From the NCBI GenBank assembly GCA_949358305.1, contig OX442322.1, positions 9,796,001 to 9,860,000 on the forward strand: a DNA stretch of 64,000 nt, written 5' to 3'. The DNA comes from Strigamia acuminata. Its lineage: Eukaryota; Arthropoda; Chilopoda; Geophilomorpha; Linotaeniidae. Both the position numbers and the translations under genes were made by a program. Shown in pieces: positions 10,403 to 58,803 of this stretch. The notes under the pieces were generated by a model. That model ran no database searches. It had not been told where the DNA came from and saw only the letters and a list, made by a program, of their open reading frames with translations. The number at the start of each line of letters is the position of its first letter. The stretch's first letter is position 1.

Positions 10403-10406
10403 ACCG

Positions 10407-32032: not shown

Positions 32033-32211
32033 GCGTTGCCGGCCAAAGAAGAAGGGAAGGCAAGGCAGAAAACTTTTGAAGGAATTCCCCATCAAAACCA
32101 AGAGCACGGAAAGAAAAAGTATCGAAGCCAAGCTTGACTTTGTGAAAGTCGCGAAGGCAAAACCATAGACACTAAAAGAAACTTAGAACACGAGAGAAGA
32201 AAGAGAAGGGC
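32033..32211 (-). other. A-3 interior, 3'-terminal piece
   Basis: Reverse complement of the A interior next to the 3' LTR, starting with GCGTTGCCGGCCAAAGAAG. It ends in GGGC (32208-32211), the left TSD copy of A-2. Confidence 0.8.
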
Positions 32212-39010: not shown

Positions 39011-40482
39011 TGTTGCAAACAACGTGGAATAATTTAGAAACTACTTTTATTGCCAATTTGTGTCTGAATAAATGTTTCCAAAGTGTGTTTTATTTTGCAT
39101 AACATTTCAGTTTTTATTTACAGGATTTTTGCATTATTAAAATGTTTTTAGTGCTTTCAGATACTGATGTTTGATGAAATGTGATATTCCATTGTTTATT
39201 GCATTTATTTCTAGTGTTTATTGCGTGATTTTGTGTTACTTTATTCATTTTCTATCAATTTGTGTGATTTCGGGTGAAATTTGGTGCATTTGTCGTTAAA
39301 CAGTTCACTAGTGTTATCGACGTGACGTCATATTTCAAGTTCTAGTTCGGTTTTTGTTCAAACTTCTAACCTTCCGTTTGGACGGAATTTTGATGGTTAG
39401 AATTGTTTTTGACATTGTTTTAGACTAATTTGGGGGTGATCTGTTGATTCGTGCACTCTAATTTCGTCCCGGAACAGCCGTTTTTCTGCTACGAGCGATC
39501 GTGACGGACCCCGCATGTGCGTTGCCGTCCAAGATCGTTTCGTTCGATTTGCGGTTGATTTCAAGTGTTCTTTCATTAAAAAGTGTCTTGTTTTGCGGGA
39601 AATTACATTCCCTGAACTTATTTACTTATTTCAAAGTGTTTACATAAGTTATTTCTTGTGTTGAAATTCAAACCTTGTGTTTTGCCGCCAATGTAGAGTT
39701 TACCGGACGCCATGTTGGATTTTGCCGATGATTTGTAAATCTTTCATGTCGCTTTGTTTTTATATCTCAATTGGTGTTAGTACTATTTAGTTTTAATGTA
39801 TTTCAATGCAAAATCTTTACTTATTTGGTTTTGTGTGTGACTTTGAATTCAAACTTGATGATTATGTCATTTTGCTTGTCTTTGATTGGTTAGGCCCAAT
39901 TGTCTGCCTAGCGATCACTGTTTTCGCTGTTTTCTCAGTGTTTTGATTAACGAATTTTGTTGTTACGATAGACTTTATTATTCCTGAGTTTTTTGTGCTC
40001 ATTTTGAGCTATTACACATTATTTTTAATACATTTCTCGTAATTTGTTGTCTTTGCTTGAAATTGCATTTCCTCCGTTTCCGTGGCAACGGAGTATTTTC
40101 TTTATTGTACTTTGACGACAATTGGCTTGTTGCGTGCCTTTTGATTGATAATGTGTAATTATTCAGTTGCCATTTTATATTTGATTAAAATAGTCGTGTT
40201 AATGTTAACTCTTGTATTTTCTGCTTTTGACCCATTTCCAATGTGTCCTGAGTAGGAAACCATTTTTCCCAGACTGGCCAATGGATCAGCAAGCACTTGG
40301 ATACCATGCAAAAGTGTTTCCAACAGTTAAACCTTCATGTAACAGGAGATTTTGAGGCGAATCAAGTGCATTTCCACACGGTACACGTACGAATTTCACT
40401 ATACGATTGTTTGAGTTTGTTGGCGGGAGTTTCGAATCGCCACATCTCAGTTCTTCTCTGTTCCTGTTGACTGACCGCAACA
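39011..40482 (+). repeat. 5' LTR of BEL-2 (1472 bp)
   Basis: TGTTGCAAACAACG start, CTGACCGCAACA end. It preserves the empty Pao-TK target, TTTCACTATACG, at about 40395-40406. Confidence 0.95.
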
Positions 40483-41392: not shown

Positions 41393-44300
41393 ATGGAGAG
41401 AGATAGAGATACAGAAACTTCCGAACGCGATTTACTCACTGTGGAGCAAATTGAAATACTAGAGACCAGGTGGGAAGCACAACTTTCATCTCTCAACGAC
41501 TTGCTGTCTTTGTCGGAGAAGACGAGCGATCCAGGAGAGTTAGAAGCGCTTCTGCTTACTGCAAATCTGAAAGAGACACGCGTTGTAAATGGCCTGAACG
41601 AGCTTCAAGTCTACTGTGAGCACGCGTTTTACCTTGAGAGTGTCGAGAAACTGGAATCATCACAAACGAGAGTGGAACTTCTCCGAAGAAGGTGGGAGGT
41701 TTCAAAGCGGTCTCTTCCAACCCTTGGAGGAAGACTCAACATGTCTACAGTTTCCGGTGCAAATACATCCCTGAATACTTCGACTTCTTTCCGCAAGAAT
41801 TCCAAGTTGCCCAAACTTGAATCTGTAAAGTTTGACGGGGAGATAATCAAATACAAGACGTTTAAGAGCAACTTTGAAACTTCTGTTCATAATGACCCAG
41901 ATCTGAGCAGTGTTGAAAAGTTGCAATACCTTCAAACTATGTGTACAGGTGAGGCTGCGGCTTTGATTTCCACCTTTCCTTTGATCGAGGAATCCTATGA
42001 CTTGGCACGGGAAGAACTTGATCGTAACTATGGCGATGAGGATGCGCAACAGACGGCTCTCATCCAATCCATTCGAGACTTGAAGACTGTTTCAAGCATA
42101 TACCCGACAAAGGTGTTGAAAGCAAATTTGACGAAAATTTCTTCAACAATACGACTTCTAGAGCAACTGAAGATTCCTGTACGGACATCTGGTGCATTTC
42201 TGATGCCGGACATTCTTAGCAAGTTTCCTGCTCCAATGACTTTGCGTTTTTACCAAGTCCATGGACTGTCTTGCAAGAACATTTTGACTTTGCTTGACTT
42301 TTTTCAAAAGGAAGTAGCTATGGCAGAACGCACTGAAGCTGTTTCTCCATCTGAAAAAGCAAAGAAGGAAAAGTCTGAAGTTGAAAAGGCTAAAGTTAAA
42401 GGATCCATGACGACTTGCACCGCGACGCAAGACTCAAAATCGTCTTCAAGCTCCAAAGTGAAGACAGAGTCGAGACAAGAGAACAAGTCTGCGAATTCCA
42501 AGGCACTCAAGTGCATTTTTTGTCAAGAAGACCATTTGAGCGGTTCTTGCAAAAAGGAGTTCGAAATCAATGCAAAGATTGAATTGATAAAGAAAAACAG
42601 ACTTTGCTTTAATTGTTTTCGAACAGGTCATCGCGTTGGTGACTGCAAAGTGAAGTTTTCCTGCAAGCATTGTGGCGGAAGACATCATTCAACCATTTGT
42701 AAGAAGTCTGAGGTGAACAATTCTCCAAGTCCGACAGAGAAACCCAAGGAGTCGCAAGTGACCACACACGTCTCGTGCGCGATATCCACTTCTCTTCAAC
42801 TTATGATTTTTGTTGCTGACCTCAAAACCAAATCTGGAGGTTCACACCACATCCGAGGCATGATTGACCCGGGTAGCCATCGGTCATTCATTACAACTGA
42901 ACTGGTGAACCGACTAAAACTGAAGAAGTGCGGCAGTATTTCTGCGACCACACAACGGTTCAACGATTCTATGCCTGCTGCCACTGATTACGACGTATAC
43001 AACGTTACTCTTCAAAGCAAGAATGACGCACAAAACTTCAAATTATCAATGCTTTCAGTGGAAAATTTGCCGAAAGTGCAGGGCATTTTGAATGCATCGG
43101 TAATAGAAAAGGTGAAGAAGCTGAATCTTGAACTTGCCGAAGATCTGCCAGCCAAGACATCTCAAATAGACATTCTTTTGGGAGTTGATGCTTGGTGGAA
43201 AGTCATTAAAGATGGCAAAAAGAAAATCAACGACGATCTTGGACTCATAAATACGTTATTTGGATGGGTGCTTATCGGAGCAGCCGGAAATACGGATTTA
43301 TTCGAAGATGAAGCTGATTTGACTTCATGTTGTAATACTTGCAACATTGAAATCCATGAACAATTAGACAAACTTTGGAACTTAGAGGCAATTGGGATTA
43401 ATGCTGGTGAAAAAGAATCCGATTTCACAAGAGATCGATTTGAAGCCACGACAAAACGTCTCGATGACGGAAGATACGAGGTGATGCTGCCTTTTAATGG
43501 ACAAGAAACTGACTTGGACTCAAACTGGGAGCTCGCTCTTAACCAATTAGCCAACACATTGAAGAGAATCGACTCAAATGACGATTATAAGAAGCGATAT
43601 GACGACTCAATGTGGCAGTACATTGAAGAAAACCACGCTGAGGAAGTTCCAACTGAAGACCGGTTCCTAAAGAAAGGAATATATAACATTCCACATCATC
43701 CAGTGATCAAAGAGGACCGGGAAACAACGAAATTCAGAGTCGTATTCAATGCGTCGTCTGCGAAAAAAGGAAAACGCTCATTAAATGACTGCCTTTTTCC
43801 TGGACCATCTTTGAATCCAGATTTGATATTGGTGATGGTCAGATTCAGATTGTATTGCATTCCAATCATTGCTGACATTAAACAAGCATTCCTCCAAGTA
43901 ATGATAAACCCCACACATAGGAACTTTCTGCGTTTTTTGTGGGTCTCGAGGCAATATTTCAAGAACCCCTATTCGTGGAGAAATTTGTGGAATAATATTA
44001 TGATTTTGAGGATGATAGTCGTACCATTTGGAGTTATTTCCTCTCCTTTTCTCCTGTGCGCAACAATTCGGAAACAAGCTGATCAATACAAGGAGACACA
44101 TCCGAAAGAAGTTGATGCACTGGACGCCGGGATATACATGGATGATTTAACTTCTGGAGGTGATCACACGACAGACACAACAAAGCATTGTGAAGAATTA
44201 AAAATGATTTTGGATGACGGGAAACTCCCACTTGTTAAATGGGCGACACCCAATGAAAAGGTTTTCAATGACATCAAAGAAAAGGGATTTCACATGAGAA

Positions 44301-46645
44301 GTGACGAATTCTGTGAACAGGGAGTGATAAAAATGCTTGGAATCTTATGGGACACGCAAGAAGACGTCCTCATTTTCAGGATTCCACAAATGGACATTAT
44401 TCCGAACACAAGACGTGAAGTTCTCTCTTTGGTAGCCTCTATTTTCGACCCGATGGGACTCATTTCTCCAGTCGTTTTGAAAATGAGACTCCTTCTTCAA
44501 GACATTTGTCTACGTACAAAGAACTGGGACGGAAGAATTTCGGACTCAGAAAAGCAAGAGATTGACGAATGGAGTCGAGACATCCAGAAATTAAAAGACT
44601 ATAAGGTACCTCGATGGTTAGAAACCTATTCTAATGAAGAGTTGAGTATTGAAGTTTTCTGTGATGCCAGCACTAAAGCCTTTGGATGTGCAATTTTCAT
44701 CGTCAACAACAAAGGAAAAAGAACTTTGCTACTCAGCAAATGTAGACTAGCCCCTGCAAAAAAGATTACCTTGCCTAGACTTGAATTAACTGCTGCGGTC
44801 GTTGGTGTACGAATGTGTCAGTATTTGACAAATAACTTTCTGCCAGGTTATCCAATCAAAACCATTCAATATTTTTCTGATTCCACCATAACTTTGGCTT
44901 GGATCAACTCGAAGAAAAATGAGTGGAAGCCTTATGTTTCTAACCGCGTTCAGGAAATTGTTTCATCGTCTGACGCAAGCCAATGGTCACATATTCCGAC
45001 AGAGTTCAATCCTGCAGATCTGCTTACACGACCACACGATGCAAAAACATTAATGACAAATAAACTTTGGTGGAACGGCGTGGACGTTTCTAAAATCGAA
45101 AAAGTCGAGGTCGTGCAAGAAAAACTACCCGAAGAAGAAAAAAGGATTGTGGTTATGAATGTTCAAGTTAAAGAAACGTTTTTGAGCAAATTTTTCAAAA
45201 GATTTCGCAACTTCAACCGTCTAGTTAGAGTATTTTCGTACATTTTGCGCTGGAAATCTCATCGTTTTCGCGGCGAAGATCTCGCGCAACGCGAAATGGA
45301 ATCTAGTCAAATTAGGATTCTTCAATTTTCACAGGAAATCTATTTTCGAGAAGAGATCGAAGCTGTGAAAAACAAGACTGAAGTTGAGAGATCATCCCCT
45401 TTGAAAAATTTCGAATATTTCTTAGATGAGGATGGACTTTTACGTTTGCGCAGCAGACTGAGATTGTCTTTGCTTTCATTTGACGAAAAATACCCGATTC
45501 TTTTGCATAACGAAAGTTGGGTAACTAGACTAATTATTCGCAAGACTCATCTTGATCTCATGCATGGAGATTTGAGTGAAACGCTTTACCGAATTCGTGA
45601 GAAATTTTGGGTTCTCCGAGGACGCAGGACCATTCAAACTGTGATAAGAGAATGTTCCGTTTGCAGAAGGACTAAACTTGCAAGAAATAATCCGTCTACT
45701 GGAGAATTACCGAAAGAAAGAGTAACCCCAGCAGCTCCTTTTCAACACACCGGAATCGATCATTTAGGACCTATTTTTGTGGGAAAGGACAAAAAACGAT
45801 TGAAGAAAACATACATTTTATTATTCACTTGTATGGTTACACGAAGTTTACATCTCGAAGTGTCCGAAGATTTATCCACTGAGAAATTCTTATTGGCATT
45901 CAGAAGATTTTGTGCTCGTTACGGTTGTCCAGCAAAAGTCTTCTCGGACAACAGTAAAACCTTTGAAAAAGGAAGTACACAAATTCAGTCATGGGGAAAA
46001 CTGATTGGCCGTTCGGACATAAAAACATTTCTGTCTGAGAAAAGGATTGTATGGACATTTATCCCTCCGCTCTCACCGTGGATGGGAGGAGCTTGGGAGA
46101 GACTAGTCCGCTCAGTCAAGGATAAATTGCGGAAAACTTTATTGCGACACACTGTGGATTTGGAAACCCTACAAACCTTGGTTCTTGAGATCAGCTCCGT
46201 GTTGAATTCACGACCTTTGTCGTATGTACACGAAAATATAGACGGCGGCAGAATCCTTTCACCTGAAAACTTTTTAACGGGAGGTATGCCGAAATACATG
46301 ATCAACAAGACCTTGAATGCAATCAAGAAAAGTGACCTTCGAAAACTCGACAAGAAAAGAAGACAGTTCATTTGGGATTTTTGGAGTATATGGAAACACA
46401 GTTACTTGATGCAGTTAAGAAACTTTTATGAGACTAAAGGAGATAAATCTTTTCAAAACCCCAAAATTGATCAGATTGTTCTTCTTGAAAAGATGGGAAC
46501 CAACCCTTACTTTTGGCCTCTTGCCAGAATAAAACAAGTTTTTCCTGGTGATGATGGACTAATTCGCATCGTTAGTGTTGTGCTTCCCGATGGAAGAGAG
46601 TTGCGTCGTTCTGTAAGGCATATTAGAGCCCTTGAACTTGATTGA
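41393..46645 (+). CDS. BEL/Pao Gag-Pol polyprotein (Gag, protease, RT, RNase H, integrase)
   Basis: Single intact frame of 1750 codons. Order: Gag with DUF1759-like core (about 139-290); zinc-knuckle region (374-436), with C-X2-C beginning at Cys374; DUF1758-type aspartic protease with Asp492 in IDPGSHRSF; RT with YMDD at 915-918; RNase H with Asp1091 (FCDAST) and Asp1163 (FSDSTITLAW); integrase zinc domain His1386, His1391, Cys1421, Cys1424; DDE core Asp1456, Asp1519, Glu1569; C-terminal DUF5641-like domain ending RALELD. It makes the particle, copies the RNA and integrates the cDNA. The ATG at 41393 is the first in frame after the splice-site-like leader end. The protease has DPG where Pao relatives usually have D(S/T)G. 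With all other catalytic residues present, this is the only complete enzyme source in the window. Confidence 0.97.
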   Translation: MERDRDTETSERDLLTVEQIEILETRWEAQLSSLNDLLSLSEKTSDPGELEALLLTANLKETRVVNGLNELQVYCEHAFYLESVEKLESSQTRVELLRRRWEVSKRSLPTLGGRLNMSTVSGANTSLNTSTSFRKNSKLPKLESVKFDGEIIKYKTFKSNFETSVHNDPDLSSVEKLQYLQTMCTGEAAALISTFPLIEESYDLAREELDRNYGDEDAQQTALIQSIRDLKTVSSIYPTKVLKANLTKISSTIRLLEQLKIPVRTSGAFLMPDILSKFPAPMTLRFYQVHGLSCKNILTLLDFFQKEVAMAERTEAVSPSEKAKKEKSEVEKAKVKGSMTTCTATQDSKSSSSSKVKTESRQENKSANSKALKCIFCQEDHLSGSCKKEFEINAKIELIKKNRLCFNCFRTGHRVGDCKVKFSCKHCGGRHHSTICKKSEVNNSPSPTEKPKESQVTTHVSCAISTSLQLMIFVADLKTKSGGSHHIRGMIDPGSHRSFITTELVNRLKLKKCGSISATTQRFNDSMPAATDYDVYNVTLQSKNDAQNFKLSMLSVENLPKVQGILNASVIEKVKKLNLELAEDLPAKTSQIDILLGVDAWWKVIKDGKKKINDDLGLINTLFGWVLIGAAGNTDLFEDEADLTSCCNTCNIEIHEQLDKLWNLEAIGINAGEKESDFTRDRFEATTKRLDDGRYEVMLPFNGQETDLDSNWELALNQLANTLKRIDSNDDYKKRYDDSMWQYIEENHAEEVPTEDRFLKKGIYNIPHHPVIKEDRETTKFRVVFNASSAKKGKRSLNDCLFPGPSLNPDLILVMVRFRLYCIPIIADIKQAFLQVMINPTHRNFLRFLWVSRQYFKNPYSWRNLWNNIMILRMIVVPFGVISSPFLLCATIRKQADQYKETHPKEVDALDAGIYMDDLTSGGDHTTDTTKHCEELKMILDDGKLPLVKWATPNEKVFNDIKEKGFHMRSDEFCEQGVIKMLGILWDTQEDVLIFRIPQMDIIPNTRREVLSLVASIFDPMGLISPVVLKMRLLLQDICLRTKNWDGRISDSEKQEIDEWSRDIQKLKDYKVPRWLETYSNEELSIEVFCDASTKAFGCAIFIVNNKGKRTLLLSKCRLAPAKKITLPRLELTAAVVGVRMCQYLTNNFLPGYPIKTIQYFSDSTITLAWINSKKNEWKPYVSNRVQEIVSSSDASQWSHIPTEFNPADLLTRPHDAKTLMTNKLWWNGVDVSKIEKVEVVQEKLPEEEKRIVVMNVQVKETFLSKFFKRFRNFNRLVRVFSYILRWKSHRFRGEDLAQREMESSQIRILQFSQEIYFREEIEAVKNKTEVERSSPLKNFEYFLDEDGLLRLRSRLRLSLLSFDEKYPILLHNESWVTRLIIRKTHLDLMHGDLSETLYRIREKFWVLRGRRTIQTVIRECSVCRRTKLARNNPSTGELPKERVTPAAPFQHTGIDHLGPIFVGKDKKRLKKTYILLFTCMVTRSLHLEVSEDLSTEKFLLAFRRFCARYGCPAKVFSDNSKTFEKGSTQIQSWGKLIGRSDIKTFLSEKRIVWTFIPPLSPWMGGAWERLVRSVKDKLRKTLLRHTVDLETLQTLVLEISSVLNSRPLSYVHENIDGGRILSPENFLTGGMPKYMINKTLNAIKKSDLRKLDKKRRQFIWDFWSIWKHSYLMQLRNFYETKGDKSFQNPKIDQIVLLEKMGTNPYFWPLARIKQVFPGDDGLIRIVSVVLPDGRELRRSVRHIRALELD

Positions 46646-46703
46646 TGTGTGTTTTGCAGACTTCTCTCATCTCTCTTCTCTCTCTTTCTCGCTGGCAATT
46701 CGT
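46646..46703 (+). promoter_or_regulatory. BEL-2 polypyrimidine tract before the 3' LTR
   Basis: From the stop codon to the LTR the strand is almost entirely C/T (TCTCTTCTCTCTCTTTCTC) and ends GCTGGCAATTCGT before TGTTGC. It occupies the position of the plus-strand primer. Confidence 0.6.
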
Positions 46704-48092
46704 TGTTGCAAACAACGTGGAATAATTTAGAAACTACTTTTATTGCCAATTTGTGTCTGAATAAATGTTTCCAAAGTGTGTTTTATTTTGCATAACATTT
46801 CAGTTTTTATTTACAGGATTTTTGCATTATTAAAATGTTTTTAGTGCTTTCAGATACTGATGTTTGATGAAATGTGATATTCCATTGTTTATTGCATTTA
46901 TTTCTAGTGTTTATTGCGTGATTTTGTGTTACTTTATTCATTTTCTATCAATTTGTGTGATTTCGGGTGAAATTTGGTGCATTTGTCGTTAAACAGTTCA
47001 CTAGTGTTATCGACGTGACGTCATATTTCAAGTTCTAGTTCGGTTTTTGTTCAAACTTCTAACCTTCCGTTTGGACGGAATTTTGATGGTTAGAATTGTT
47101 TTTGACATTGTTTTAGACTAATTTGGGGGTGATCTGTTGATTCGTGCACTCTAATTTCGTCCCGGAACAGCCGTTTTTCTGCTACGAGCGATCGTGACGG
47201 ACCCCGCATGTGCGTTGCCGTCCAAGATCGTTTCGTTCGATTTGCGGTTGATTTCAAGTGTTCTTTCATTAAAAAGTGTCTTGTTTTGCGGGAAATTACA
47301 TTCCCTGAACTTATTTACTTATTTCAAAGTGTTTACATAAGTTATTTCTTGTGTTGAAATTCAAACCTTGTGTTTTGCCGCCAATGTAGAGTTTACCGGA
47401 CGCCATGTTGGATTTTGCCGATGATTTGTAAATCTTTCATGTCGCTTTGTTTTTATATCTCAATTGGTGTTAGTACTATTTAGTTTTAATGTATTTCAAT
47501 GCAAAATCTTTACTTATTTGGTTTTGTGTGTGACTTTGAATTCAAACTTGATGATTATGTCATTTTGCTTGTCTTTGATTGGTTAGGCCCAATTGTCTGC
47601 CTAGCGATCACTGTTTTCGCTGTTTTCTCAGTGTTTTGATTAACGAATTTTGTTGTTACGATAGACTTTATTATTCCTGAGTTTTTTGTGCTCATTTTGA
47701 GCTATTACACATTATTTTTAATACATTTCTCGTAATTTGTTGTCTTTGCTTGAAATTGCATTTCCTCCGTTTCCGTGGCAACGGAGTATTTTCTTTATTG
47801 TACTTTGACGACAATTGGCTTGTTGCGTGCCTTTTGATTGATAATGTGTAATTATTCAGTTGCCATTTTATATTTGATTAAAATAGTCGTGTTAATGTTA
47901 ACTCTTGTATTTTCTGCTTTTGACCCATTTCCAATGTGTCCTGAGTAGGAAACCATTTTTCCCAGACTGGCCAATGGATCAGCAAGCACTTGGATACCAT
48001 GCAAAAGTGTTTCCAACAGTTAAACCTTCATGTAACAGGAGATTTTGAGGCGAATCAAGTGCATTTCCACACGGTACACGTACGAATTTCAC
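46704..48092 (+). repeat. 3' LTR of BEL-2, first 1389 bp
   Basis: Same as 39011-40399, interrupted after TCAC (48089-48092) by Pao-TK. Confidence 0.95.
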
Positions 48093-49450
48093 TGTTGCTA
48101 GCAACATAAAGGAAAGCTGCTAAACGTCTTAAAAATTAGTCATCTGGAATTATTAAAAAGGGTTTTTAATATTTATCTTAGATTGGGAATTTAATTAGAC
48201 ACTTATCTGAATATAAGTCTTCTTTGAGTTAGTTTGAGTGAATTTCTCAGTACTGGTTGATCTGACCGGATAAATCTGGGAAGAAAAGAGTTTTTACATT
48301 AGTTATTTATCCACTTAGAATTTATTTTCTATCTTGTTTACCTGTGTTATGCATGTTTTGATGTTTCCAAGTGTTTTCCTGTTTCCAGTCCACTACTGGC
48401 AATGTAGTGACAAGGTGTAGTGACGCTCTCAGAAAGCAAAAGTGTACTGGAATGAGAAATGTATGTTATTATCAGTTTTAAGCTGTTTCAATCAATTTCT
48501 GTTTGTTTTCTGTATATTACTAACCAATTAAGCGTTTTGTTAACTTAGATTGTGTGTAGCCTGTCTAGTGAGCTAATTTCAAGCCTTTCTTTCTTCCTGC
48601 AAGTGATCTCTGTTTACATTGTCGGCCATTACTGTGGGAGTGGTCTACTTGTATCTGTAAAGAGAGGAGAAAATGTTTAATCCCAAAGAGTTTTTGTGGG
48701 TTCTGATTAATAATTAATCACTTAATTATTATGCAATGTAAAAGTGTTAAGTTTAAGATTTATCTGTGTTGATTTATAACTTAACTTCTGCACTTACTGT
48801 AAAGTTGCCAGCTCATTGGTCTAAAATGTCTTTACTTATTCTTTTCTCTATTTTATGAGTTGTTCAGTGTGTTTTAGAGTGAATAATTTAGTTCTCAATG
48901 AGCATTGTGTTTAGAGACTGTTGTTAATGTATACTTTTGCATTTAATGTCAAATACTTGCTGTTAGGCTTATGTGTTTTCAACTATTAACTTCTACGGTA
49001 GTTTTGTTGTGCCAGCAGTACTTATTTCTCTTTACAAGCACTTAGAGACCTCTGTAACTTTAAGTGCAAGTGTCCTTATACAATGTGGAGATAGTTACAC
49101 TTGTTGTTTCTTATTATTGTTAAAGTGTGACTTCTTTGTAAAATCCTCGTGATTCAATTGTAGTAGTCTTGTTAAGAATTTAGAGAATAAAATGGTTGCT
49201 TTTTATTTCTCTCCAAGTCTCATTTCTCTATACAACCAGAAAGCAATGTGCAGTGAGTAGAAAAATCCTCCTTCCTCCTCCTTGAACTCACCAGTGGCAG
49301 ATCATCATGTGAAGCAGCAAGTTCAAGTCCAGTGTTTGCATTTCTTCAAGTCTTTGGCCAACTTCTGTGTATCAATTTGTGCCAAGCAGCAGTCAAGTAT
49401 TGCCGCCCCTCCTTCTGGCCTGGTTGTCGCCTGCGACCTTGCCAGAAACA
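48093..49450 (+). repeat. 5' LTR of Pao-TK (1358 bp)
   Basis: Starts with the perfect inverted repeat TGTTGC-TA-GCAACA and ends TGCCAGAAACA. An AATAAA lies near 49186-49191. Offset to the 3' copy is a constant 5232 bp. Confidence 0.95.
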
Positions 49451-50271
49451 ATTTGGTACCGTGAACCAAGGATTTCTTCCAGTTATCTCAGTGGACCTTC
49501 ATGTGTGCTGCAAAATTCATCAGTGGGTTTTGTTCTCAAGCTGTGCAAAGCTTTTATGTGTAAAGTGCCATTGAAGCTGTGCCACTACAGTGAAGTGTAT
49601 GCTCTCGTCCGCCTTTCACAGGCAAAAAAGTGGGTTTTTCAAGTTGGATTCTCAAATTGTCAAGATGGTCAAGATGTTTTTCAACTTGGATCAAGCAAGG
49701 CTTCGAGAGTACGAGCGATCCTGCACGACAATCAATTCCAAACACAACGCAATGTACATCCTACAAGAAGATTTGAAGAAATAATTATTAAGAATTATTA
49801 TTTAAATAGAATAATATCCGAATTTGCTGCTGTAATTATTTCAAAAAGAGTTTTTGATTAGAAACTGGTGTAGTTGGGGGGAGAAGAAGTTTAAGTCTTA
49901 ACAGTTTGAATAAATTCTCGATTCCAGTTTGTGGAATTTAGAGAATATCCAGTGAATTAGTGAATAATACCAAGCTTTAGTGTTGGTATCCCAATTTAAA
50001 ACGAGTATCTAGTCAGAAACTCAATTGTGAAAATAAGAGAATTGTCAATTACCTTTAATTATTGAATTTTGGGGGTTAATTTGCCAATCCTGTTAACATC
50101 CCGTGTGTTTCAATCCTGTTAACAGCTTGTGGATATCCATCCTGCTTTTGTGTGTTCAGTAAATCCTAGAGTGTAAAAGAATTAGACAATTTCTTGTTAA
50201 CCAATTTAGTCAGTTAAGTTGAGTTTGAATCCTGAACTGATCTTTGAATTCTTCATTTCTCGGTGAGGATT
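49451..50271 (+). promoter_or_regulatory. Pao-TK leader: PBS-like site and conserved 16-mer
   Basis: TGGTACCGTGAACC at 49454-49467 is the PBS candidate, 3 bases after the LTR. ACACAACGCAATGTAC at 49742-49757 is identical to the motif in A-1, A-2 and A-3, and AGAAGATTTGAAG follows shortly, echoing TGAAGATTTCG after the A motif. Upstream frames (49367-49861 and others) overlap and have no recognisable domain. The CDS start is the ATG at 50272. Confidence 0.6.
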
Positions 50272-53200
50272 ATGGCTACATTATCCGCTGCTGATCTCGA
50301 GGAAAAGGAGGTCATTTGGAAAGCAAAGGCTCAAGGAGCCGAGGATCTGCTGGGATCTTCAGTCAACATTCTAGACGGAGGAGAGCTGGAAGCCATGCAA
50401 ATAACGGTTGACCAGCAATTGAGTGATCTCGCCGACGAATTGAAAGCTCTTAAAGACGAGTCAAAAAGAGAGGACTATTTAGCGGGGCTTCAACGAATTG
50501 AAGACATTAGAACCAGAGTAAATTTATTGAAGCAAAGAGCAAAAGTGTCTGGAAAAATGGCAGGGCAATTTGGTTCCCATCCGGGACAGAATTCCAGTTT
50601 AAACCAGACGTCCGCTTCATCTAGGAGAAACACGAGATTGCCGAAAACCGACATTGCCAAATTTAGTGGCGATGCAACTGAATATAGAGGTTTTGCGAAT
50701 TTATTCGAATCAGCAGTTGATCAGAACACGGAGCTTTCGAACGTGGAAAAGCTTATATATCTGAGGTCATGCTGCACTGGGGCTGCAGAATCCGCAATCA
50801 AGTCGTACCCAATAACTGATGACGCCTACCCATTAGCGAAAAACACATTGGAGAGTCTATTCGGTTCTGAAAACACGCAGAGAAATGCTATTTCAAAGAT
50901 GATTAGGGAGTCGAAACCCGTTTTCGATCTCTACCCAATCGAGCCACTCAAAGCTCTATTCACGTCATTGGCATCTGCTGTCCGGACCATGGCGCAACTG
51001 TCTGTGTCAGTTGACACTACTGGAACGTACCTTATTCCAGAACTACTTAGAAAATTTCCACCGGAGATCTCCCAACGTTTTTACCGAAAGCATCAAGGAA
51101 AAGTTGATGATGTTAACGTTTTTCTGGACTTCGTAGCAACCGAGATACAACTGGCTGAATTGTCGGAAGAAAGCGTTCTCCTTAAGCGCGCTCATCTGAA
51201 GAAGTCAGAAAAATTTGAGAAAACTTCAAAGGAAACAAGAGAAAGACCAACTGGAACCATGTCCTCATTCGTGACTTCCGAGAATGGAAAATTGAGTATG
51301 AATTCCAAGTCAAATCCAAACCGCAAACCCGCCTGCGCTTATTGTGATGGTGATCACGCACACGCAAATTGTGATGCGGATCTCGATGTACCAGCGAGGA
51401 TCGAAATAGTGAAGAAGAAACGACTTTGTTTCAACTGCTTGAGATATAACCACACAGCCAAAGAATGTACCGTGAAGTTTTGTTGTCGCTTGTGTGGTGG
51501 AAGACATCACACATCGATCTGCAACAAAAACAACAAAGAAAAAGCGATTACACCAAAAGAAGAAAACGTGTCTACTAATGTATCGCTTACCGAGTCGGTG
51601 GAGATTCAACTGATGGTCTTCACTGCTCTTTTTGTGAAGAAAAATGGAGACATGTACCCCGTCCGCGGATTACTAGATCCAGGAAGCCATCGCTCCTACG
51701 TCACGAAGAGACTAGTAAATAAATTCCGGATGCAAAAGATCGAGACACTACACACGATGACACAGTGTCTGCTCAACAAAAAGCCAGTTCCGACGACACA
51801 TGATGTCTTTAGATTCGAACTACAATCAAGACACGGAACAAAAAAGACATCAATCCTTGCATTAGAAACCGACACACTCCCGAAAGTCAAAGGGATAATT
51901 GGAGCAGAAGCCATAAAGCAAGTCCAATCACTCGAACTTGAGATGGCTGAGATACATCCGTCAGAATCGGAAGACATTGACGTCTTATTAGGAAGCAACG
52001 CATGGTGGAAGATTTGTCAAGGTGGAAGCCGAAAAATCAACGACGAGTTGGGATTAATGGAGACAATTTTTGGGTGGATTCTAAACGGTCGACTGAAACC
52101 AAACAACCCGCTTGAAGAAAACATGGCAGCGTGCAACATTTCTTGCATGGCGGTCGAGTCCAAAGAAGAAGTGATCTCAAATCAACCTGAAAATGACGAA
52201 AACAAAATAGTCCAATTAATTCCGAAATCACTGCCCAACAGGAATGGCGAACCCGGTGTGAATAAACAGACAGACGTCACACCTTCTTGTTTTGCCGCGA
52301 GCCTCTCCAGTGGTCTGGAGAAAGAGGAACTGGACACCACCCTCCAAAAAACGAAAAAGTCGTTCAAGGATGGAGGATTGGTCAACAGAACTCCAAGCTC
52401 GGACATGAAGCCGGAATTACGAGGGCGAAATCAGTTAGAGTCAGGGAGAAAGAACGTCGAATTACTTACAAATCAAGTGCACAGTTTGCAAAAATTGTGT
52501 GCAATCGTGAGATGGAGTGGAAACGTGATTCTGAATTTCTGGAAAAAGAAAATTGATTTGTCAACCAATCAAAAGGGAATTCATCTCATCATTGGTCCAA
52601 TGTATGCGGGGAAAACGACCAAGTTATTGAAGCTTTTAGAAAAGGAAGAGAAGACGTCGTCCCTGCTAATTAAACACTCCAATGACGATCGTTACAGTAA
52701 AACCGAAGTCGTGACTCACGACGGTCATCGACGAGAAGCAATCGCGACCAGTAGCCTAACCAATGCTGTGGAAAAAACGAAATTAGTGAAGACAATCGGA
52801 ATTGACGAAGGACAGTTTTTTCCCGACATTTTTACTTTTTCAAATGAAATGGCTGAGCAAAAGAAAAAGGTAATAGTCGCCGCATTAGACGTCGACTTCA
52901 AGAGGAAGCCATTTGATCAGATATCCGAGTTAGTTCCACTAGCCGAGTCTGTTGTGAAACTACAAGCAAAATGTTATTTTTGCGGAGATAAAGCTGAATT
53001 TTCAAGACGAATTTCGCACGAAACCAGAGTCAAGGTGATAGGAGGGATCGACAAATACAAACCAACCTGTCGAGTATGTTTCTCAAAGCCCATGAAGTCC
53101 CTAGAGACGAAAAGGAAAATCATCAACGGAATTATTCGACTTAGTTGTATGATTGTCAACCGAAGAATACCTCCGTGGATACCAAATTTGATCCGTCAAA

Positions 53201-53289
53201 GAATCATGCCACCCAGAGTGGAATACGAAAAGGTGAAAGAGGTCTCCCAAATATTATCATCAAAGACCAGAAGTAATCAAACTAAATGA
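50272..53289 (+). CDS. Gag-protease-thymidine kinase fusion polyprotein of Pao-TK
   Basis: 1005 codons from ATG 50272 (GTG at 50263 is in frame but unlikely as a start). Order: coiled-coil-like N-terminus (1-115); Gag DUF1759-like core (123-270); three zinc knuckles with Cys355/358/His362/Cys367, Cys386/389/His394/Cys399 and Cys405/408/His413/Cys417; DUF1758-type aspartic protease with Asp469 in LLDPGSHRSY and the WW and FGW(I)LNG landmarks to about 605; unique linker (606-770); TK1-type thymidine kinase (771-940); basic tail (941-1005). The kinase has P-loop GPMYAGKTT (775-783), DDRYS, catalytic IDEGQFFPD with Glu846, PLAESVVKL, and zinc pairs Cys901/904 and Cys933/936. It should phosphorylate thymidine to dTMP. 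The protease lies upstream and could release it in the particle. RT, RNase H and integrase are absent. The kinase is intronless and all key TK1 residues are present. Confidence 0.95.
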   Translation: MATLSAADLEEKEVIWKAKAQGAEDLLGSSVNILDGGELEAMQITVDQQLSDLADELKALKDESKREDYLAGLQRIEDIRTRVNLLKQRAKVSGKMAGQFGSHPGQNSSLNQTSASSRRNTRLPKTDIAKFSGDATEYRGFANLFESAVDQNTELSNVEKLIYLRSCCTGAAESAIKSYPITDDAYPLAKNTLESLFGSENTQRNAISKMIRESKPVFDLYPIEPLKALFTSLASAVRTMAQLSVSVDTTGTYLIPELLRKFPPEISQRFYRKHQGKVDDVNVFLDFVATEIQLAELSEESVLLKRAHLKKSEKFEKTSKETRERPTGTMSSFVTSENGKLSMNSKSNPNRKPACAYCDGDHAHANCDADLDVPARIEIVKKKRLCFNCLRYNHTAKECTVKFCCRLCGGRHHTSICNKNNKEKAITPKEENVSTNVSLTESVEIQLMVFTALFVKKNGDMYPVRGLLDPGSHRSYVTKRLVNKFRMQKIETLHTMTQCLLNKKPVPTTHDVFRFELQSRHGTKKTSILALETDTLPKVKGIIGAEAIKQVQSLELEMAEIHPSESEDIDVLLGSNAWWKICQGGSRKINDELGLMETIFGWILNGRLKPNNPLEENMAACNISCMAVESKEEVISNQPENDENKIVQLIPKSLPNRNGEPGVNKQTDVTPSCFAASLSSGLEKEELDTTLQKTKKSFKDGGLVNRTPSSDMKPELRGRNQLESGRKNVELLTNQVHSLQKLCAIVRWSGNVILNFWKKKIDLSTNQKGIHLIIGPMYAGKTTKLLKLLEKEEKTSSLLIKHSNDDRYSKTEVVTHDGHRREAIATSSLTNAVEKTKLVKTIGIDEGQFFPDIFTFSNEMAEQKKKVIVAALDVDFKRKPFDQISELVPLAESVVKLQAKCYFCGDKAEFSRRISHETRVKVIGGIDKYKPTCRVCFSKPMKSLETKRKIINGIIRLSCMIVNRRIPPWIPNLIRQRIMPPRVEYEKVKEVSQILSSKTRSNQTK

Positions 53290-53324
53290 TGGGTTGTTCG
53301 CACTTTCTTTTCGCCGGCAATCTA
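53290..53324 (+). promoter_or_regulatory. Pao-TK pre-LTR segment
   Basis: Only 35 bp separate the stop codon from the 3' LTR. They contain CACTTTCTTTTCGCCGGCAA, the pyrimidine tract and GCCGGCAA motif found at this place in the BEL elements, so the element keeps the cis signals its missing enzymes would act on. Confidence 0.6.
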
Positions 53325-54682
53325 TGTTGCTAGCAACATAAAGGAAAGCTGCTAAACGTCTTAAAAATTAGTCATCTGGAATTATTAAAAAGGGTTTTTA
53401 ATATTTATCTTAGATTGGGAATTTAATTAGACACTTATCTGAATATAAGTCTTCTTTGAGTTAGTTTGAGTGAATTTCTCAGTACTGGTTGATCTGACCG
53501 GATAAATCTGGGAAGAAAAGAGTTTTTACATTAGTTATTTATCCACTTAGAATTTATTTTCTATCTTGTTTACCTGTGTTATGCATGTTTTGATGTTTCC
53601 AAGTGTTTTCCTGTTTCCAGTCCACTACTGGCAATGTAGTGACAAGGTGTAGTGACGCTCTCAGAAAGCAAAAGTGTACTGGAATGAGAAATGTATGTTA
53701 TTATCAGTTTTAAGCTGTTTCAATCAATTTCTGTTTGTTTTCTGTATATTACTAACCAATTAAGCGTTTTGTTAACTTAGATTGTGTGTAGCCTGTCTAG
53801 TGAGCTAATTTCAAGCCTTTCTTTCTTCCTGCAAGTGATCTCTGTTTACATTGTCGGCCATTACTGTGGGAGTGGTCTACTTGTATCTGTAAAGAGAGGA
53901 GAAAATGTTTAATCCCAAAGAGTTTTTGTGGGTTCTGATTAATAATTAATCACTTAATTATTATGCAATGTAAAAGTGTTAAGTTTAAGATTTATCTGTG
54001 TTGATTTATAACTTAACTTCTGCACTTACTGTAAAGTTGCCAGCTCATTGGTCTAAAATGTCTTTACTTATTCTTTTCTCTATTTTATGAGTTGTTCAGT
54101 GTGTTTTAGAGTGAATAATTTAGTTCTCAATGAGCATTGTGTTTAGAGACTGTTGTTAATGTATACTTTTGCATTTAATGTCAAATACTTGCTGTTAGGC
54201 TTATGTGTTTTCAACTATTAACTTCTACGGTAGTTTTGTTGTGCCAGCAGTACTTATTTCTCTTTACAAGCACTTAGAGACCTCTGTAACTTTAAGTGCA
54301 AGTGTCCTTATACAATGTGGAGATAGTTACACTTGTTGTTTCTTATTATTGTTAAAGTGTGACTTCTTTGTAAAATCCTCGTGATTCAATTGTAGTAGTC
54401 TTGTTAAGAATTTAGAGAATAAAATGGTTGCTTTTTATTTCTCTCCAAGTCTCATTTCTCTATACAACCAGAAAGCAATGTGCAGTGAGTAGAAAAATCC
54501 TCCTTCCTCCTCCTTGAACTCACCAGTGGCAGATCATCATGTGAAGCAGCAAGTTCAAGTCCAGTGTTTGCATTTCTTCAAGTCTTTGGCCAACTTCTGT
54601 GTATCAATTTGTGCCAAGCAGCAGTCAAGTATTGCCGCCCCTCCTTCTGGCCTGGTTGTCGCCTGCGACCTTGCCAGAAACA
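53325..54682 (+). repeat. 3' LTR of Pao-TK (1358 bp)
   Basis: Direct repeat of 48093-49450, followed by TCAC (54683-54686), the right TSD copy. Confidence 0.95.
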
Positions 54683-54686
54683 TCAC

Positions 54687-54769
54687 TATACGATTGTTTG
54701 AGTTTGTTGGCGGGAGTTTCGAATCGCCACATCTCAGTTCTTCTCTGTTCCTGTTGACTGACCGCAACA
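54687..54769 (+). repeat. 3' LTR of BEL-2, last 83 bp
   Basis: Continues the LTR interrupted at 48092 and matches 40400-40482. It ends CTGACCGCAACA and is followed by GTGT, the right TSD copy of BEL-2. Confidence 0.95.
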
Positions 54770-54773
54770 GTGT

Positions 54774-57455
54774 AAACCATCTGCGACCTCTTGTCCACAG
54801 CGACAAGGAAACACGCGCACGCTGACCCATCAACCACAACTTTATCTAACTAACAAGAGAAAAACGGTTCAATTATCTAAACAGAACGAGCACGTTCCGT
54901 GCAAATAAATACCGGCTAAAACGTCAATATTATCACTAAAGCTATTGGCCAAGTATGGCCTCACAAAGGAAACTAGCAAACCGGAACTGTGAAAACCAGC
55001 AAGAATTCCAAAACACTAAACTTCTGCTTTTTTTTCCGAAGAGGGAACAAGTCCGTACCCAAATAATCAATCCATTTCCTCCCCACGAGAAAAGAAAGGA
55101 AAGGGACCTGCTTCTTTTTGAAGATCAACAGGTGTCATATGATACTGAAAAACGTTGGAAGCAGTGCAACTGCAACCAAATGAAGCGAAGCTACACTTCC
55201 TTCACGAAAACTAATCACGTCGTTGAAAAGAAATTAAAACCGGTGGCTTTCTTTCAACCGAGCTGCGCTTTACGAATGCGCCTTGAACAAAGAGGTACCC
55301 GATGGACTGCACGTCCGCACTCGGGCCACCGTGTAGCCTGTTGTGAGCAGACTACCACGAAGACTGAAACTTCTTTAACCGAGGGGGAAATAGAAACTAG
55401 ATCTAGTTAAAACCCCATGCTCCAATAAGGAGGCTACCGTATGAACGCTTGGCCCACCCCGAGTCGGAACCAATATGATTGAACCGAAAAACGAGAGAAG
55501 AGGGAGGGTTGCTTGACGTCCCTGATTGCGAGGGGCGTCACACATAGACATGAGCACAAGGACTTGCCAGTTGCCAACCGCATTACTGGAACCGGTAAGC
55601 AACTGCAAGTCGACAATTGACTCGCTCACATACCCATTGACCACATCGTCGATCAGCAAGCCGACTTCCGGAAATCGCCACTTTACTGAAAGCACGTGTT
55701 GTCCAATGACTAAAACGTGTTGCCGAGTGCCGGCGCCAAGAAGGCCGCACACACACGCCCTTCGACCCATCCTAGAGTGGGCTCCCTGCCTAGTGCATGT
55801 CTGCCTCACTGCAGAGCTAGGAATGAAAGACTAACAACAACTACTCAGTCGCGGGAAGCAAACGTAGAAATAGGGGCCGCCAAAAGGCGCAGGGACTATG
55901 TCTCGGACACGACATCTGACAGAGTATGGCAGTGCAAACCTGCCCTCTGAAACACATCGAATGGCAGTCCTTGCTGTGCACAGCAAGAACGACCATCCAA
56001 AACAAGTACCTATACCCTAACGCCACGCTAGCTAGCCACAACCCAAAAATAGCAAGCAAGCTATTTCCTAAACGAATAAGCTAAAATGTCCAAATTCTAA
56101 GGTTGCCCCAAAGAACTAGAATAACTAAACTCCCTTTTTTAAACGATAAAAGGCGAGACTAATCACTAATGAAGACTCATGAAACGCTACGGACGTTTCC
56201 ACGAAGAGAAAGCGAAAATGCAGAACGTACATCACCAGCGGTAGACACTGGGTGCAGCAGTCAACAACAGAAACTGGACTTGCCCAGTGGGCGGTGCGGA
56301 TCGGCTGCTCTAAACTTCCAGCACCGACAGAAGTCACACGCCTATCTAAATCCAAACCCACTTGCAAACAAGTCGTAACACAATCTAACCGAACAGAAAT
56401 TTGACGGACAGATAAGAACCGACTGACCTCACGGGCCAGCGCTCGCTCAGCTTGACATGAGCAGCAAAAGAACGAATCTCGTTCTAAAAACAAGAAACGT
56501 TCTACAGACACACGAATACAAACGGGTGTGCCCTCTCCCGAAGCGGAGAGATGACCGACACCAGAGCTCACGAGGAAACTCGTGCAACACATGAAAGACA
56601 TTGGACACAAAACGTAAAGACCAGAGGTCGTCCACATTCCAAACACAAGAGCAGGCTCACATGACGAGAAGAAGCTAGATCACTCAAGGACCCCCCTGAC
56701 CGCCGCTCTGATAGGCGGGAAGGACGAGAAGAGGGAACTGGTTGGCCCACAATAGCTAGTAATTTAACTTTAGCGTAGGGCAGAAAGCTAAAAGCGGGAG
56801 TTAATCGACCCCAAGCTGACGACTAACTGGCCAACACCACTAAAAATCTGCAAATGTGACGACGCTCCTGTCAGTAAGCCTAAAAAAACTCTCAAAGAGT
56901 TTACACGTAACAAGGGAAAAACCCTGGGAAATTACAAGAACTCAAGACCAAAGAGCTTATTGTATAATAAGTTGGCGATTTCAAATTAAAAGGGAGTGGA
57001 TTAAAGAAAATTCAAATACAACTAACTACCGTATGCACGGATTGGGCCAAAAATTCTCAATAAAACGTGTGCAAGCTACTTAAAAAACCGCAGGTCTAAC
57101 TGTAGACAATTAAAGACAGGAACTCCCTAATTAATTTCCGACAAAAAAGCCAATAAATTCATATAAGCTACTCTTTAGTATCTTTAACAAGAAACTCATG
57201 ACATTAATACTAGAAAACGCATTCGAGGAGGACAAAAACAGAAGTTTAGAGTTTAAGGGGACTCCAAACAAGGCGCAAATAGGCGTGGAAACTAGCTACA
57301 CTTGCACAACGACGTATGCAGAAGCATGAAACAGAACTAACGCCCCAAAACTCCCAAAACAACCAGAATATCCCCCAAAAACCTTAAAATTAACATATGA
57401 TGAAAACGAGAAAATATAATCGACAAAAAAAACAAAATCTTCATTGCCGATTCTA
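54774..57455 (-). other. A-3 interior, right piece, non-coding
   Basis: Reverse complement of A body, parallel to A-1 6385-9059. It retains the AACTAGATCTAGTT and TTGCTGTGCACAGCAA palindromes. The stretch near 56880-57230 differs from A-1 and A-2 and may be a replaced segment. Confidence 0.75.
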
Positions 57456-58025
57456 GTACATTGCGTTGTGTTTAACTGGCGGTCGACTGACGCTTGAAGA
57501 GTGACTCTTCCAAACTCGGTGACCATTCTGTGTGCGCTGACGGCACGAATCTCTTTGCTGGATCGTCCATTCTGCCTGAGAAAACTGGCTCTGCTGAAGA
57601 CGAAACAACTCGACTGGAATCTTGACCGCGTCGCTTGTGAGACGGCGCACGTCTGTGTGGACACAGCCTCGTACTGTCCAACGAACTGGGCACACGAAAT
57701 CCGGGAAAATCTTGCCGAAACTCTCTCCATCGACGATCCTGAAGTGGTCGCTGCATTCCGCCATACGACGCACTCGTACTGGGCGAATCTGAGACGAATT
57801 TCGCCATCCCGAGCAGCAATTCTCGATTTGACCGACAGCCACACGCATTGCGCTTGTGAATGCGCTGGCTTCACACGATGCGTCTGTCGTCACTAAGCGC
57901 TGGCAGCCTCCACTGCAATTACCGATCTTGTTTCCGAAAATGGCGGCGATGTCACCCATTTTCGAACTCACGGCAACCTGACGACACTTGGCTAGCATCC
58001 TGGTCAAGCAAAACGGCACCAAAAA
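57456..58025 (-). promoter_or_regulatory. A-3 leader: PBS-like site, GC-rich block and conserved 16-mer
   Basis: On minus: TTTTTGGTGCCGTTTTGC just after the LTR edge at 58026, and ACACAACGCAATGTAC at 57456-57471 (plus coordinates). A block near 57540-57605 differs from A-1 and A-2, while the flanking leader is nearly unchanged. Confidence 0.6.
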
Positions 58026-58799
58026 TGTTTCTAGCAATGCTTTGTGGCCGTGTGGCACTCTAGAAGACAACAGAAAAAGCTTATAACAAATAAACCTACT
58101 TACTAGAACTTGTGATGAGCTCCAAAAGAGATGATGCATTGCAGGAGAAATCCTGCTTGAAATCCCTGCAAAGTGGCCTAATAAGTGTCTGGAAGAACTC
58201 ACCACTAATATGCCAAATAACACATAAACAAACCGAATTTAATGTAAAGTTAATATCTATCAAAAGTACACAGAAAAGAGAGGAGAAAATTACATATCTT
58301 AACCCTAGAAATCTACATAACAGTCACAGTGTAGTTGCTGCGCAACCTACAACAATGAGAGCAGCGGCTCTTAGCAACGAGTGGCAACAATCACTCGCAA
58401 GAGGCAAATTGTCCCTCTAGTGACAAAATGATAAAGCGTATACAAGAAAATACACAGTTTCAAGTATAAAATCATTACAAAAGGCACAAAACCGTAATAC
58501 ATTAAGCCAAAGTGTTTCAAATAAATGAACTAACTTAGGAACTAACAACAGCAACTCTTCGGACGAATCCAAGCAGTAAAACTCCAAAGAATCAAAGGAA
58601 AAATACAAGATTACCTTAAGAAAGACAGCTTAAATCAGGTAAAACATAACTCCCACGTCACAAACTACACGAAATTCATTTAACATTTAGCCAAAACTTA
58701 AGCTGCACTATTAACTAAACACAAACTTAAATAATTGATCAATTCAAGCAAATCCGCTATTGCGATAGCAAAAAATCCATGTTGCGCGTGCTCGCAACA
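58026..58799 (-). repeat. 5' LTR of A-3 (774 bp)
   Basis: Direct repeat of 31259-32032. The right TSD copy GCCT follows at 58800-58803. Confidence 0.9.
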
Positions 58800-58803
58800 G
58801 CCT

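What the first reader, a model, noticed from the sequence alone, without database searches (positions are those of the whole stretch)
50272..53289. A Pao-type retrotransposon whose polymerase has been replaced by a thymidine kinase
One uninterrupted frame carries Pao Gag, zinc knuckles and DUF1758 protease up to the FGW(I)LNG landmark. In BEL-2 that landmark leads into RT. Here a linker of about 165 residues and a full TK1-type kinase follow, and RT, RNase H and integrase are absent from the whole element. I know of no described LTR retrotransposon that trades Pol for a nucleotide-salvage kinase. A fused kinase would be packed with Gag into the particle and could supply dTMP where reverse transcription happens, an idea parallel to the dUTPases of some retroviruses. 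Fusion and intactness are seen; the role is inference.
Basis: partly seen in the sequence, partly recalled or inferred. Interest (0 to 1): 0.96.

Follow-up and report, generated by a model that had tools for sequence, protein, structure and literature searches.

The report
Retrotransposon carrying a thymidine kinase
In a centipede genome, a jumping gene of the retrovirus-like kind has lost its copying enzyme, carries a DNA-building-block enzyme (thymidine kinase) in its place, and has nevertheless spread to many near-identical copies, apparently by borrowing a neighbour's copying machinery.

Summary
Window 48093-54682 is a complete LTR element: two identical 1358-bp LTRs, a 4-bp target duplication, and one 1005-codon ORF (50272-53289). 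The ORF joins BEL/Pao-type Gag and protease to a full TK1-type thymidine kinase (PF00265, E 2e-54). No RT, RNase H or integrase was found.

It is no single-copy oddity or bad join. By open-frame length, 84 of the 150 scored TK matches of this genome (Strigamia acuminata; window on the Y) are full-length copies, in two families whose Gag-PR is 59% and TK 56% identical. All 22 insertions checked have 4-5 bp duplications. Within family A the kinase shows dN/dS of about 0.15-0.17, while the linker beside it is near-neutral. P-loop, DEGQF and four zinc cysteines are kept.

These are non-autonomous, helper-dependent elements. The likely helper is the autonomous BEL into whose LTR the window copy is inserted (similar PPT/LTR junction, LTR ends, primer region, TSD length; overlapping chromosomal niche). 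Local dTMP supply to reverse transcription is the most likely role, but is inference. I found no described precedent. The five TK repeat families form one clade. Half of the checked insertions lie in a 140-bp satellite.

The parts
48089..48092 (.). left target-site duplication TCAC
   Evidence: second copy at 54683-54686
48093..49450 (+). 5' LTR, 1358 bp, TGTTGC...AAACA
   Evidence: 100% identical to 53325-54682
49454..49475 (+). primer-binding-site-like region, 3 nt after the LTR
   Evidence: similar in family B and in the window BEL; primer tRNA not identified
50272..53289 (+). single ORF Gag-PR-TK, 1005 codons plus stop
50662..51087 (+). Gag core, DUF1759
   Evidence: PF03564 1.9e-17
51427..51522 (+). 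two zinc-knuckle-like motifs
   Evidence: positions; zf-CCHC 12.7 bits, sub-threshold; conserved in the BEL
51547..52101 (+). protease-like region, DPGS at 51676-51687, ending with the FGWILNG landmark (52069-52089)
   Evidence: homology to the BEL; motif positions; no DUF1758 hit of its own
52090..52578 (+). linker, about 163 aa, fast-evolving
   Evidence: 27% identity between families A and B; dN/dS about 0.6 within A
52579..53082 (+). TK1-type thymidine kinase domain
   Evidence: PF00265 2.1e-54; human TK1 in PDB 4e-42; predicted fold
53083..53286 (+). C-terminal tail with predicted helix, partly alike in family B
53301..53324 (+). polypurine-tract-like region and GGCAAT junction before the 3' LTR
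   Evidence: GGCAAT...TGTTGC also at three BELs of the window
53325..54682 (+). 3' LTR
54683..54686 (.). right target-site duplication TCAC
39011..40482 (+). 5' LTR of the intact autonomous BEL, the probable helper type; TSD GTGT at 39007-39010
   Evidence: boundary read from the printed letters
41393..46645 (+). BEL Gag-Pol ORF, 1750 aa: DUF1759, DUF1758, RVT_1 (4e-6, 27.1 bits against 29.6), Peptidase_A17 (1e-39), Integrase_H2C2 (2.5e-8), DUF5641
46704..54769 (+). 3' LTR of that BEL, split by the TK element into 46704-48092 and 54687-54769; TSD GTGT at 54770-54773

Best explanation
This is a non-autonomous, helper-dependent BEL/Pao-derived LTR retrotransposon in which everything after the protease was replaced by an in-frame TK1-type thymidine kinase. 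Likely cycle: the LTR drives a genomic RNA that is translated into Gag-PR-TK. That protein co-assembles with the Gag-Pol of an autonomous BEL of the window type. The particle takes up the TK RNA, and the helper's RT and integrase copy and insert it through shared cis-signals. The kinase is held by selection on the element, most likely because TK delivered in or near the particle makes dTMP where dTTP limits reverse transcription (for example in resting or germ cells). Shown: structure, mobility, copy number, selection on TK, similar cis-signals, overlapping niche. Inferred: packaging, enzyme activity, dTTP supply, identity of the helper.
For: Complete element with identical LTRs and TSD. 47 family A and 37 family B full-length frames among 150 scored matches. 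22 of 22 insertions checked have 4-5 bp TSDs, both families TG...CA. Families 59% identical in Gag-PR, 56% in TK, 27% in linker; TK dN/dS 0.15-0.17 within A (Fisher p 8e-5 and 2e-7) while the linker gives p 0.22 and 0.098. P-loop, DEGQF and four cysteines are among 32 columns invariant in 39 TKs. Helper: GGCAAT...TGTTGC junction at the 3' LTR of the TK element and of three BELs, 4 matches against 0.00 in shuffles (pattern written after seeing these sites); BEL TSD also 4 bp; primer region 20 of 32 identical, largest of 500 shuffles 19; 36 of 36 chromosome-placed matches among the 40 scored for the window-type BEL Pol fall in or beside blocks that hold TK elements, whereas the 150 best A17 matches of other BEL/Pao are mostly dispersed.
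Against: No expression, particle or enzyme data. The window TK departs from 17 of 74 columns on which at least 90% of 38 other TKs agree. Away from the terminal motifs the LTRs of TK element and BEL are unrelated, and an ungapped comparison of the PPT/LTR region did not exceed shuffles (24, 22 and 21 of 45 identical; largest shuffled 24, 26 and 25). So the helper is argued from short motifs, TSD length and niche. None of the 40 scored BEL Pol places lies on C8 or C9, which hold 13 and 6 full TK elements; 509 candidates existed, and the ranking by nearness to a Y copy favours the Y. TK selection could serve a need other than reverse transcription.
Confidence: 0.6

Rival explanations
1. Passive transduction: a host TK copy was caught by chance and is carried along without use, as in one-off captured genes of plant LTR elements.
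For: Elements that transduce host genes are known (PMC7264820, passages), and the donor here may be a host gene.
Against: TK stays 56% identical between two families with saturated synonymous sites and has dN/dS about 0.15 within family A, with the core motifs kept, while the adjoining linker drifts.
Confidence: 0.06
2. The kinase is kept by selection but acts in the host cell rather than in the particle: it changes nucleotide pools or cell state in the germ line to help transmission, or it works as a non-catalytic binding or assembly domain.
For: Three other repeat families also keep intact TK genes that are not fused to Gag, so the benefit may not need packaging. The window TK departs from 17 of 74 near-invariant columns.
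Against: In the A and B copies TK is in one frame with Gag-PR, so it would be made as part of the Gag precursor; P-loop, DEGQF and zinc cysteines are kept, against a purely structural role.
Confidence: 0.27
3. The TK elements are helped by a different, unseen BEL lineage rather than the window type.
For: LTR bodies differ from the window BEL and Gag-PR is only 36% identical; 1068 A17 candidates exist in the genome; none of 40 scored window-type places is on C8 or C9.
Against: Similar junction motif, LTR ends, TSD and blocks with the window type.
Confidence: 0.25
4. Assembly or annotation artefact.
For: None found.
Against: HiFi assembly with QV 59.6 (PMC10556566, passages); many insertions with their own TSDs.
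Confidence: 0.01

Closest known systems
Autonomous BEL/Pao retrotransposons (the window BEL at 39011-54769)
   Same: Gag with DUF1759 and zinc knuckles, protease region, PPT/LTR junction motif, TG...CA LTR ends, 4-bp TSD
   Different: no RT, RNase H or integrase; a thymidine kinase follows the protease
dUTPase-bearing retroviruses and LTR elements (bdelloid Juno, Vesta, TelKA; PMC5408684, passages)
   Same: a deoxynucleotide-metabolism enzyme built into a retroelement
   Different: there dUTPase is added between PR and RT and Pol is kept; here TK stands in place of Pol and the element needs a helper
Acute transforming retroviruses with Gag-oncogene fusions (recalled)
   Same: host-type gene fused in frame to Gag in place of Pol; replication with a helper
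   Different: metabolic kinase instead of a signalling protein; germ-line retrotransposon families with a long history instead of viral isolates
Gene-transducing plant LTR elements such as maize Bs1 (PMC7264820, passages)
   Same: LTR element carrying host-derived coding sequence
   Different: [quoted passage not shown] here two amplified families with selection on the captured gene
m6A RNA demethylase domain in orchid Ty3/Gypsy elements (PMC9289625, search listing and start of abstract)
   Same: acquired enzymatic domain in an LTR element
   Different: different enzyme and superfamily

Membership tests
BEL/Pao LTR retrotransposon (autonomous) | two LTRs with TG...CA ends and a short TSD | tested here: met
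BEL/Pao LTR retrotransposon (autonomous) | Pao-type Gag (DUF1759) | tested here: met
   1.9e-17
BEL/Pao LTR retrotransposon (autonomous) | aspartic protease | tested here: inconclusive
   homology to the BEL protease region and DPGS; no DUF1758 hit in this ORF
BEL/Pao LTR retrotransposon (autonomous) | RT, RNase H and integrase | tested here: not met
   so it is a non-autonomous derivative, not an autonomous member
TK1-type (type II) thymidine kinase | PF00265 profile and fold | tested here: met
TK1-type (type II) thymidine kinase | P-loop, catalytic Glu in DEGQF, four zinc cysteines | tested here: met
   invariant columns; roles of the residues recalled; 17 of 74 other near-invariant columns differ
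TK1-type (type II) thymidine kinase | phosphorylates thymidine | not testable with these tools
   needs an enzyme assay
helper-dependent gene-transducing retroelement | Gag fused to captured gene, Pol lost, still mobile | tested here: met
helper-dependent gene-transducing retroelement | autonomous relative with compatible cis-signals in the same genome | tested here: inconclusive
   autonomous BEL present; junction, TSD and primer region alike, but LTR bodies unrelated and no functional test
helper-dependent gene-transducing retroelement | captured gene comes from the host | tested here: inconclusive
   TKs of five repeat families form one clade, but no host TK gene was found for comparison

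The most novel reading that the evidence does not exclude
A metabolic satellite of a retrotransposon: an LTR element traded its whole polymerase for a nucleotide-salvage enzyme, is copied by a helper BEL, and pays or competes by raising dTTP inside shared particles. Thymidine kinase has become a recurrent currency among repeats in this genome (five families of one clade), and both Gag-TK families share with their helper a niche rich in a 140-bp satellite.
Probability: 0.35. Interest if true: 0.93.

Novelty: new variant of a known kind. Interest (0 to 1): 0.84.

Why it matters
Reverse transcription is held to be limited by dNTP supply in resting cells, and some retroelements carry dUTPase (the first recalled, the second in PMC5408684, passages). 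An element that keeps a salvage kinase instead of its own polymerase would show that precursor supply can be worth more to a mobile element than self-sufficiency when helpers abound. It makes dNTP limitation of retrotransposition in a germ line directly testable. It also gives a long-lived animal retrotransposon counterpart of Gag-fusion transducing retroviruses.

Tried and rejected
Assembly join: rejected by copy number and own TSDs. Single-copy oddity: rejected. Hidden Pol elsewhere in the element: not found, tblastn empty with a working control. Gag-PR relatives in IMG/VR: 6 pattern stretches, none confirmed. TK-bearing proteins of about 0.55-1.75 times 1005 aa in the 5.8-billion protein set: 2296 candidates, none at E<=0.001; transposon proteins are often masked in annotation (recalled), so this is weak evidence of absence. 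A nematode telomere repeat as host clue led nowhere; the host came from COX1 and the scaffold length. tRNA search of the window for a primer: none found. Host TK gene: 100 of 175 DEGQFF-codon matches were listed; I opened the four whose codons differed from those of the families: two decayed A/B-type copies and two unrelated stretches. Places after C12 were not listed, so a host gene is not excluded. Papers: searches gave no LTR element with a thymidine kinase in what I saw (listings, plus passages of the papers named). The nature of TK repeats C, D and E stays open: 10 ORFs from 5 loci gave no Pfam domain that explains them; one is a Copia-type frame, one an integrase frame beside an E copy. 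More flanking DNA could not be had.
Full report
WHAT IS THERE. Window 48093-54682 is a complete LTR retrotransposon of 6590 bp. Its LTRs are 1358 bp and identical, begin TGTTGC and end AAACA, and are flanked by a TCAC duplication. One ORF (50272-53289) encodes 1005 residues. Pfam finds TK (2.1e-54) and DUF1759 Gag (1.9e-17); zf-CCHC is below its cut-off and DUF1758 is not found in this ORF. The part up to about residue 625 is 36% identical over 645 columns to the intact BEL of the window, in which Pfam finds Peptidase_A17 (1e-39), Integrase_H2C2 (2.5e-8), DUF1758 just over its cut-off, and RVT_1 at 4e-6, a little under its cut-off. So the protease assignment rests on homology. Past FGWILNG the element has a linker of about 163 residues, the kinase and a tail; 35 bp separate the stop from the 3' LTR. 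BEL Pol finds nothing in the element by tblastn, but 76% identity over 1095 residues in a control BEL.

HOST. The mitochondrial COX1 (found, translated) is closest to the centipede Mecistocephalus marmoratus (84%; a geophilomorph, recalled). The largest scaffold, 66,985,994 bp, equals the longest scaffold given for Strigamia acuminata qcStrAcum1.1 (PMC10556566, passages). By length the window's contig (10,344,242 bp) is the Y chromosome. The assembly is HiFi with QV 59.6, and the fusion recurs in many places, so it is not a join.

COPIES. Of 205 first-look candidates, 150 TK matches were scored. By open-frame length they are 47 of family A (1013 or 1009 codons, the window's), 37 of family B (995 or 1002), 40 of a 190-codon family C, 13 of a family D, 5 of a family E, and 8 other Gag-type frames, shorter or broken. 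(One search counted 149 typed rows; the row that I missed is a C copy.) I read the translations of four full-length A/B copies and one broken one. A search with Gag-PR gave 72 scored matches of 1309 candidates: 51 of family A at 97-100%, one broken copy at 87%, and 20 of family B at 59%. Nineteen of the 84 full A/B frames lie on the Y. I read the flanks of 20 elements (10 A, 10 B) whose two LTRs were both listed, plus L026 and the window: 22 of 22 have a 4-5 bp TSD and TG...CA ends. In the LTR searches only 40 of 122 and 40 of 101 candidates were scored; listed pairs have the spacing of TK elements and I saw none round a longer element. Decayed relatives of both families exist (L079, L080), so TK elements are old residents.

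SELECTION. Within family A the TK domain gives dN 0.017 and dS 0.113 (window against L028) and 0.040 and 0.233 (against L021, itself a frame-broken copy), Fisher p 8e-5 and 2e-7. The adjoining linker gives 0.055 and 0.087, and 0.147 and 0.238, p 0.22 and 0.098. Two further A copies, L076 and L077, give much the same TK values (dN 0.020, dS 0.113) and share ancestry, so they are no independent tests. The C-terminal tail is not clearly constrained within A. In family B the sample is thin (5 synonymous and 3 non-synonymous changes, p 0.015). Between A and B synonymous sites are saturated, TK is 56% identical (dN 0.37), Gag 56% (0.38), the protease region 65%, and the linker 27% (0.70). So TK evolves like Gag, not like spacer. 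In an alignment with 38 other TKs, 32 columns are invariant, among them the P-loop GPM..K, DEGQF and four cysteines (roles recalled from human TK1). But the window TK departs from 17 of the 74 columns on which at least 90% of the others agree. One of these is a serine at the place of human Thr163; family B keeps threonine there. The title of PDB 2wvj says that Thr163 to Ser shifts human TK1 from thymidine towards an analogue (title cut), so the specificity of family A may differ. AlphaFold2 gives mean pLDDT 79, with 130 of 269 residues at 90 or more, nearly all the kinase core, and a helix after it. The best PDB match is human TK1, TM 0.84 by target and 0.53 by query length. Activity is untested.

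ORIGIN OF THE KINASE. In a tree of 50 TKs (11 from this genome, 39 chosen from the 120 listed) the five TK families form one clade (99/94), A and B are sisters (99/94), and E groups with C and D (98/86). One fusion before the A/B split is the simplest account. Whether the donor was a host gene or another repeat is open: no centipede host TK was in the tree, and none turned up in a motif search whose listing (100 of 175 places) stopped at C12. Families C and D show purifying selection against each other (dS 1.07, dN 0.13). Pairs of C copies and of D copies are alike over nearly the whole 10 kb fetched, and the ORFs scanned there gave no Pfam domain that explains them.

HELPER. The window copy sits inside the 3' LTR of an intact BEL; the last 83 bp of that LTR follow the TK element and its TSD, and the BEL has its own TSD, GTGT. 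A pattern for the PPT/LTR junction, written after seeing these sites, finds 4 places in the window, the TK element and three BELs, with 0.00 in shuffles. Family B has GGCAAT followed by TGTTTC. The region after the 5' LTR is 20 of 32 identical between TK element and BEL, against a largest shuffled value of 19. Against this, an ungapped comparison of the PPT/LTR region did not exceed shuffles, and the LTR bodies are unrelated. As to niche, the window-type BEL Pol gave 40 scored places of 509 candidates; the 36 on chromosomes lie on the Y beyond 8.6 Mb (24), chromosome 1 beyond 65 Mb (3), C5 12.8-14.8 Mb (4) and C11 0.5-1.0 Mb (5), in or beside blocks that hold TK elements. None is on C8 or C9, where 13 and 6 full TK elements lie, and the ranking by nearness to a Y copy favours the Y. 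The 150 best A17 matches (of 1068 candidates) of other BEL/Pao are spread along the chromosomes, none on C1 beyond 64 Mb; three (two on C8, one on C5) lie in or near TK blocks.

TARGETS. Eleven of 22 empty sites (6 of 11 A, 5 of 11 B) match a 140-bp satellite found beside L027, and five others match other repeats of the window, three of them BEL sequence. An exact 20-base word of the satellite occurs 33,654 times and a 21-base word 26,997 times. At one word per unit the first makes at least about 4.7 Mb, or 2% of the genome. The listed places on C1 start at 65.2 Mb, within the TK cluster. Preference or survival of insertions could explain this; the 22 were among the best LTR matches, not a random draw.

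MECHANISM. The least strained account is a helper-dependent element. Gag-PR-TK would enter mixed particles and BEL RT and integrase would act in trans on shared signals. A kinase in the particle precursor points to a benefit at reverse transcription, dTMP where dTTP is short. The same facts allow a benefit in the cell at large, and the Gag-free TK families C to E speak a little for that. I give the helper-dependent structure about 0.85, an active kinase kept for the element's good about 0.7, and supply of reverse transcription about 0.45. (On checking I lowered the kinase figure from 0.75 and the overall confidence from 0.62 to 0.6, and raised the second rival from 0.25 to 0.27, because and the missing BEL places on C8 and C9.)

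NOVELTY. Enzymes in LTR elements are known, including dUTPase between PR and RT in bdelloid elements (PMC5408684, passages). [quoted passage not shown] BEL/Pao are described with the Ty3/Gypsy domain order and few with env (PMC3118150, passages). Gag fused to a host gene in place of Pol is known from transforming retroviruses (recalled). I found no thymidine kinase in a retroelement in the paper searches (listings and some passages seen) or in the protein set at this length. I therefore file it as a new variant of a known kind.

Noticed in passing
G000: L022-L025 (family C, 190-codon TK, 40 of 150 places), L009, L010 and L014-L020 (family D, 13 places), L011-L013 (family E, 5 places): Three further dispersed repeat families carry open, Gag-free, single-exon TK genes of the same clade; compared pairs of C and of D are alike over nearly the whole 10 kb fetched, and the kind of repeat is unknown.
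   Followed up: partly
L027:7097-10000: A 140-bp tandem satellite (33,654 exact 20-base words in the genome) hosts 11 of 22 checked TK-element insertions.
   Followed up: partly
L023:1083-3848: A 922-codon Copia-type frame (RVT_2 1e-51) with a methyl-CpG-binding domain (PF01429, 6.5e-11) inside it.
   Followed up: no
window 39011-40482, 41393-46645, 46704-48092, 54687-54769: Intact BEL with 100% identical LTRs, its 3' LTR split by the TK element; two more BELs run off the window edges.
   Followed up: yes
window 5782-10405, 32209-36818, 54767-58802: A repeat of about 4 kb at 92-96% identity in both orientations, with a 256-279 codon frame on one strand; nature not studied.
   Followed up: no
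L079, L080: Decayed copies of families B and A, with stops or breaks, far from the young clusters on chromosome 1.
   Followed up: partly
G000:C13 (Y chromosome): 19 of 84 full Gag-PR-TK frames lie on the 10.3-Mb Y; 24 of 40 scored places of the window-type BEL Pol are there too.
   Followed up: partly
window TK domain, Ser at the place of human TK1 Thr163: Family A has serine, family B threonine; by its PDB title (2wvj) this change alters the specificity of human TK1.
   Followed up: partly
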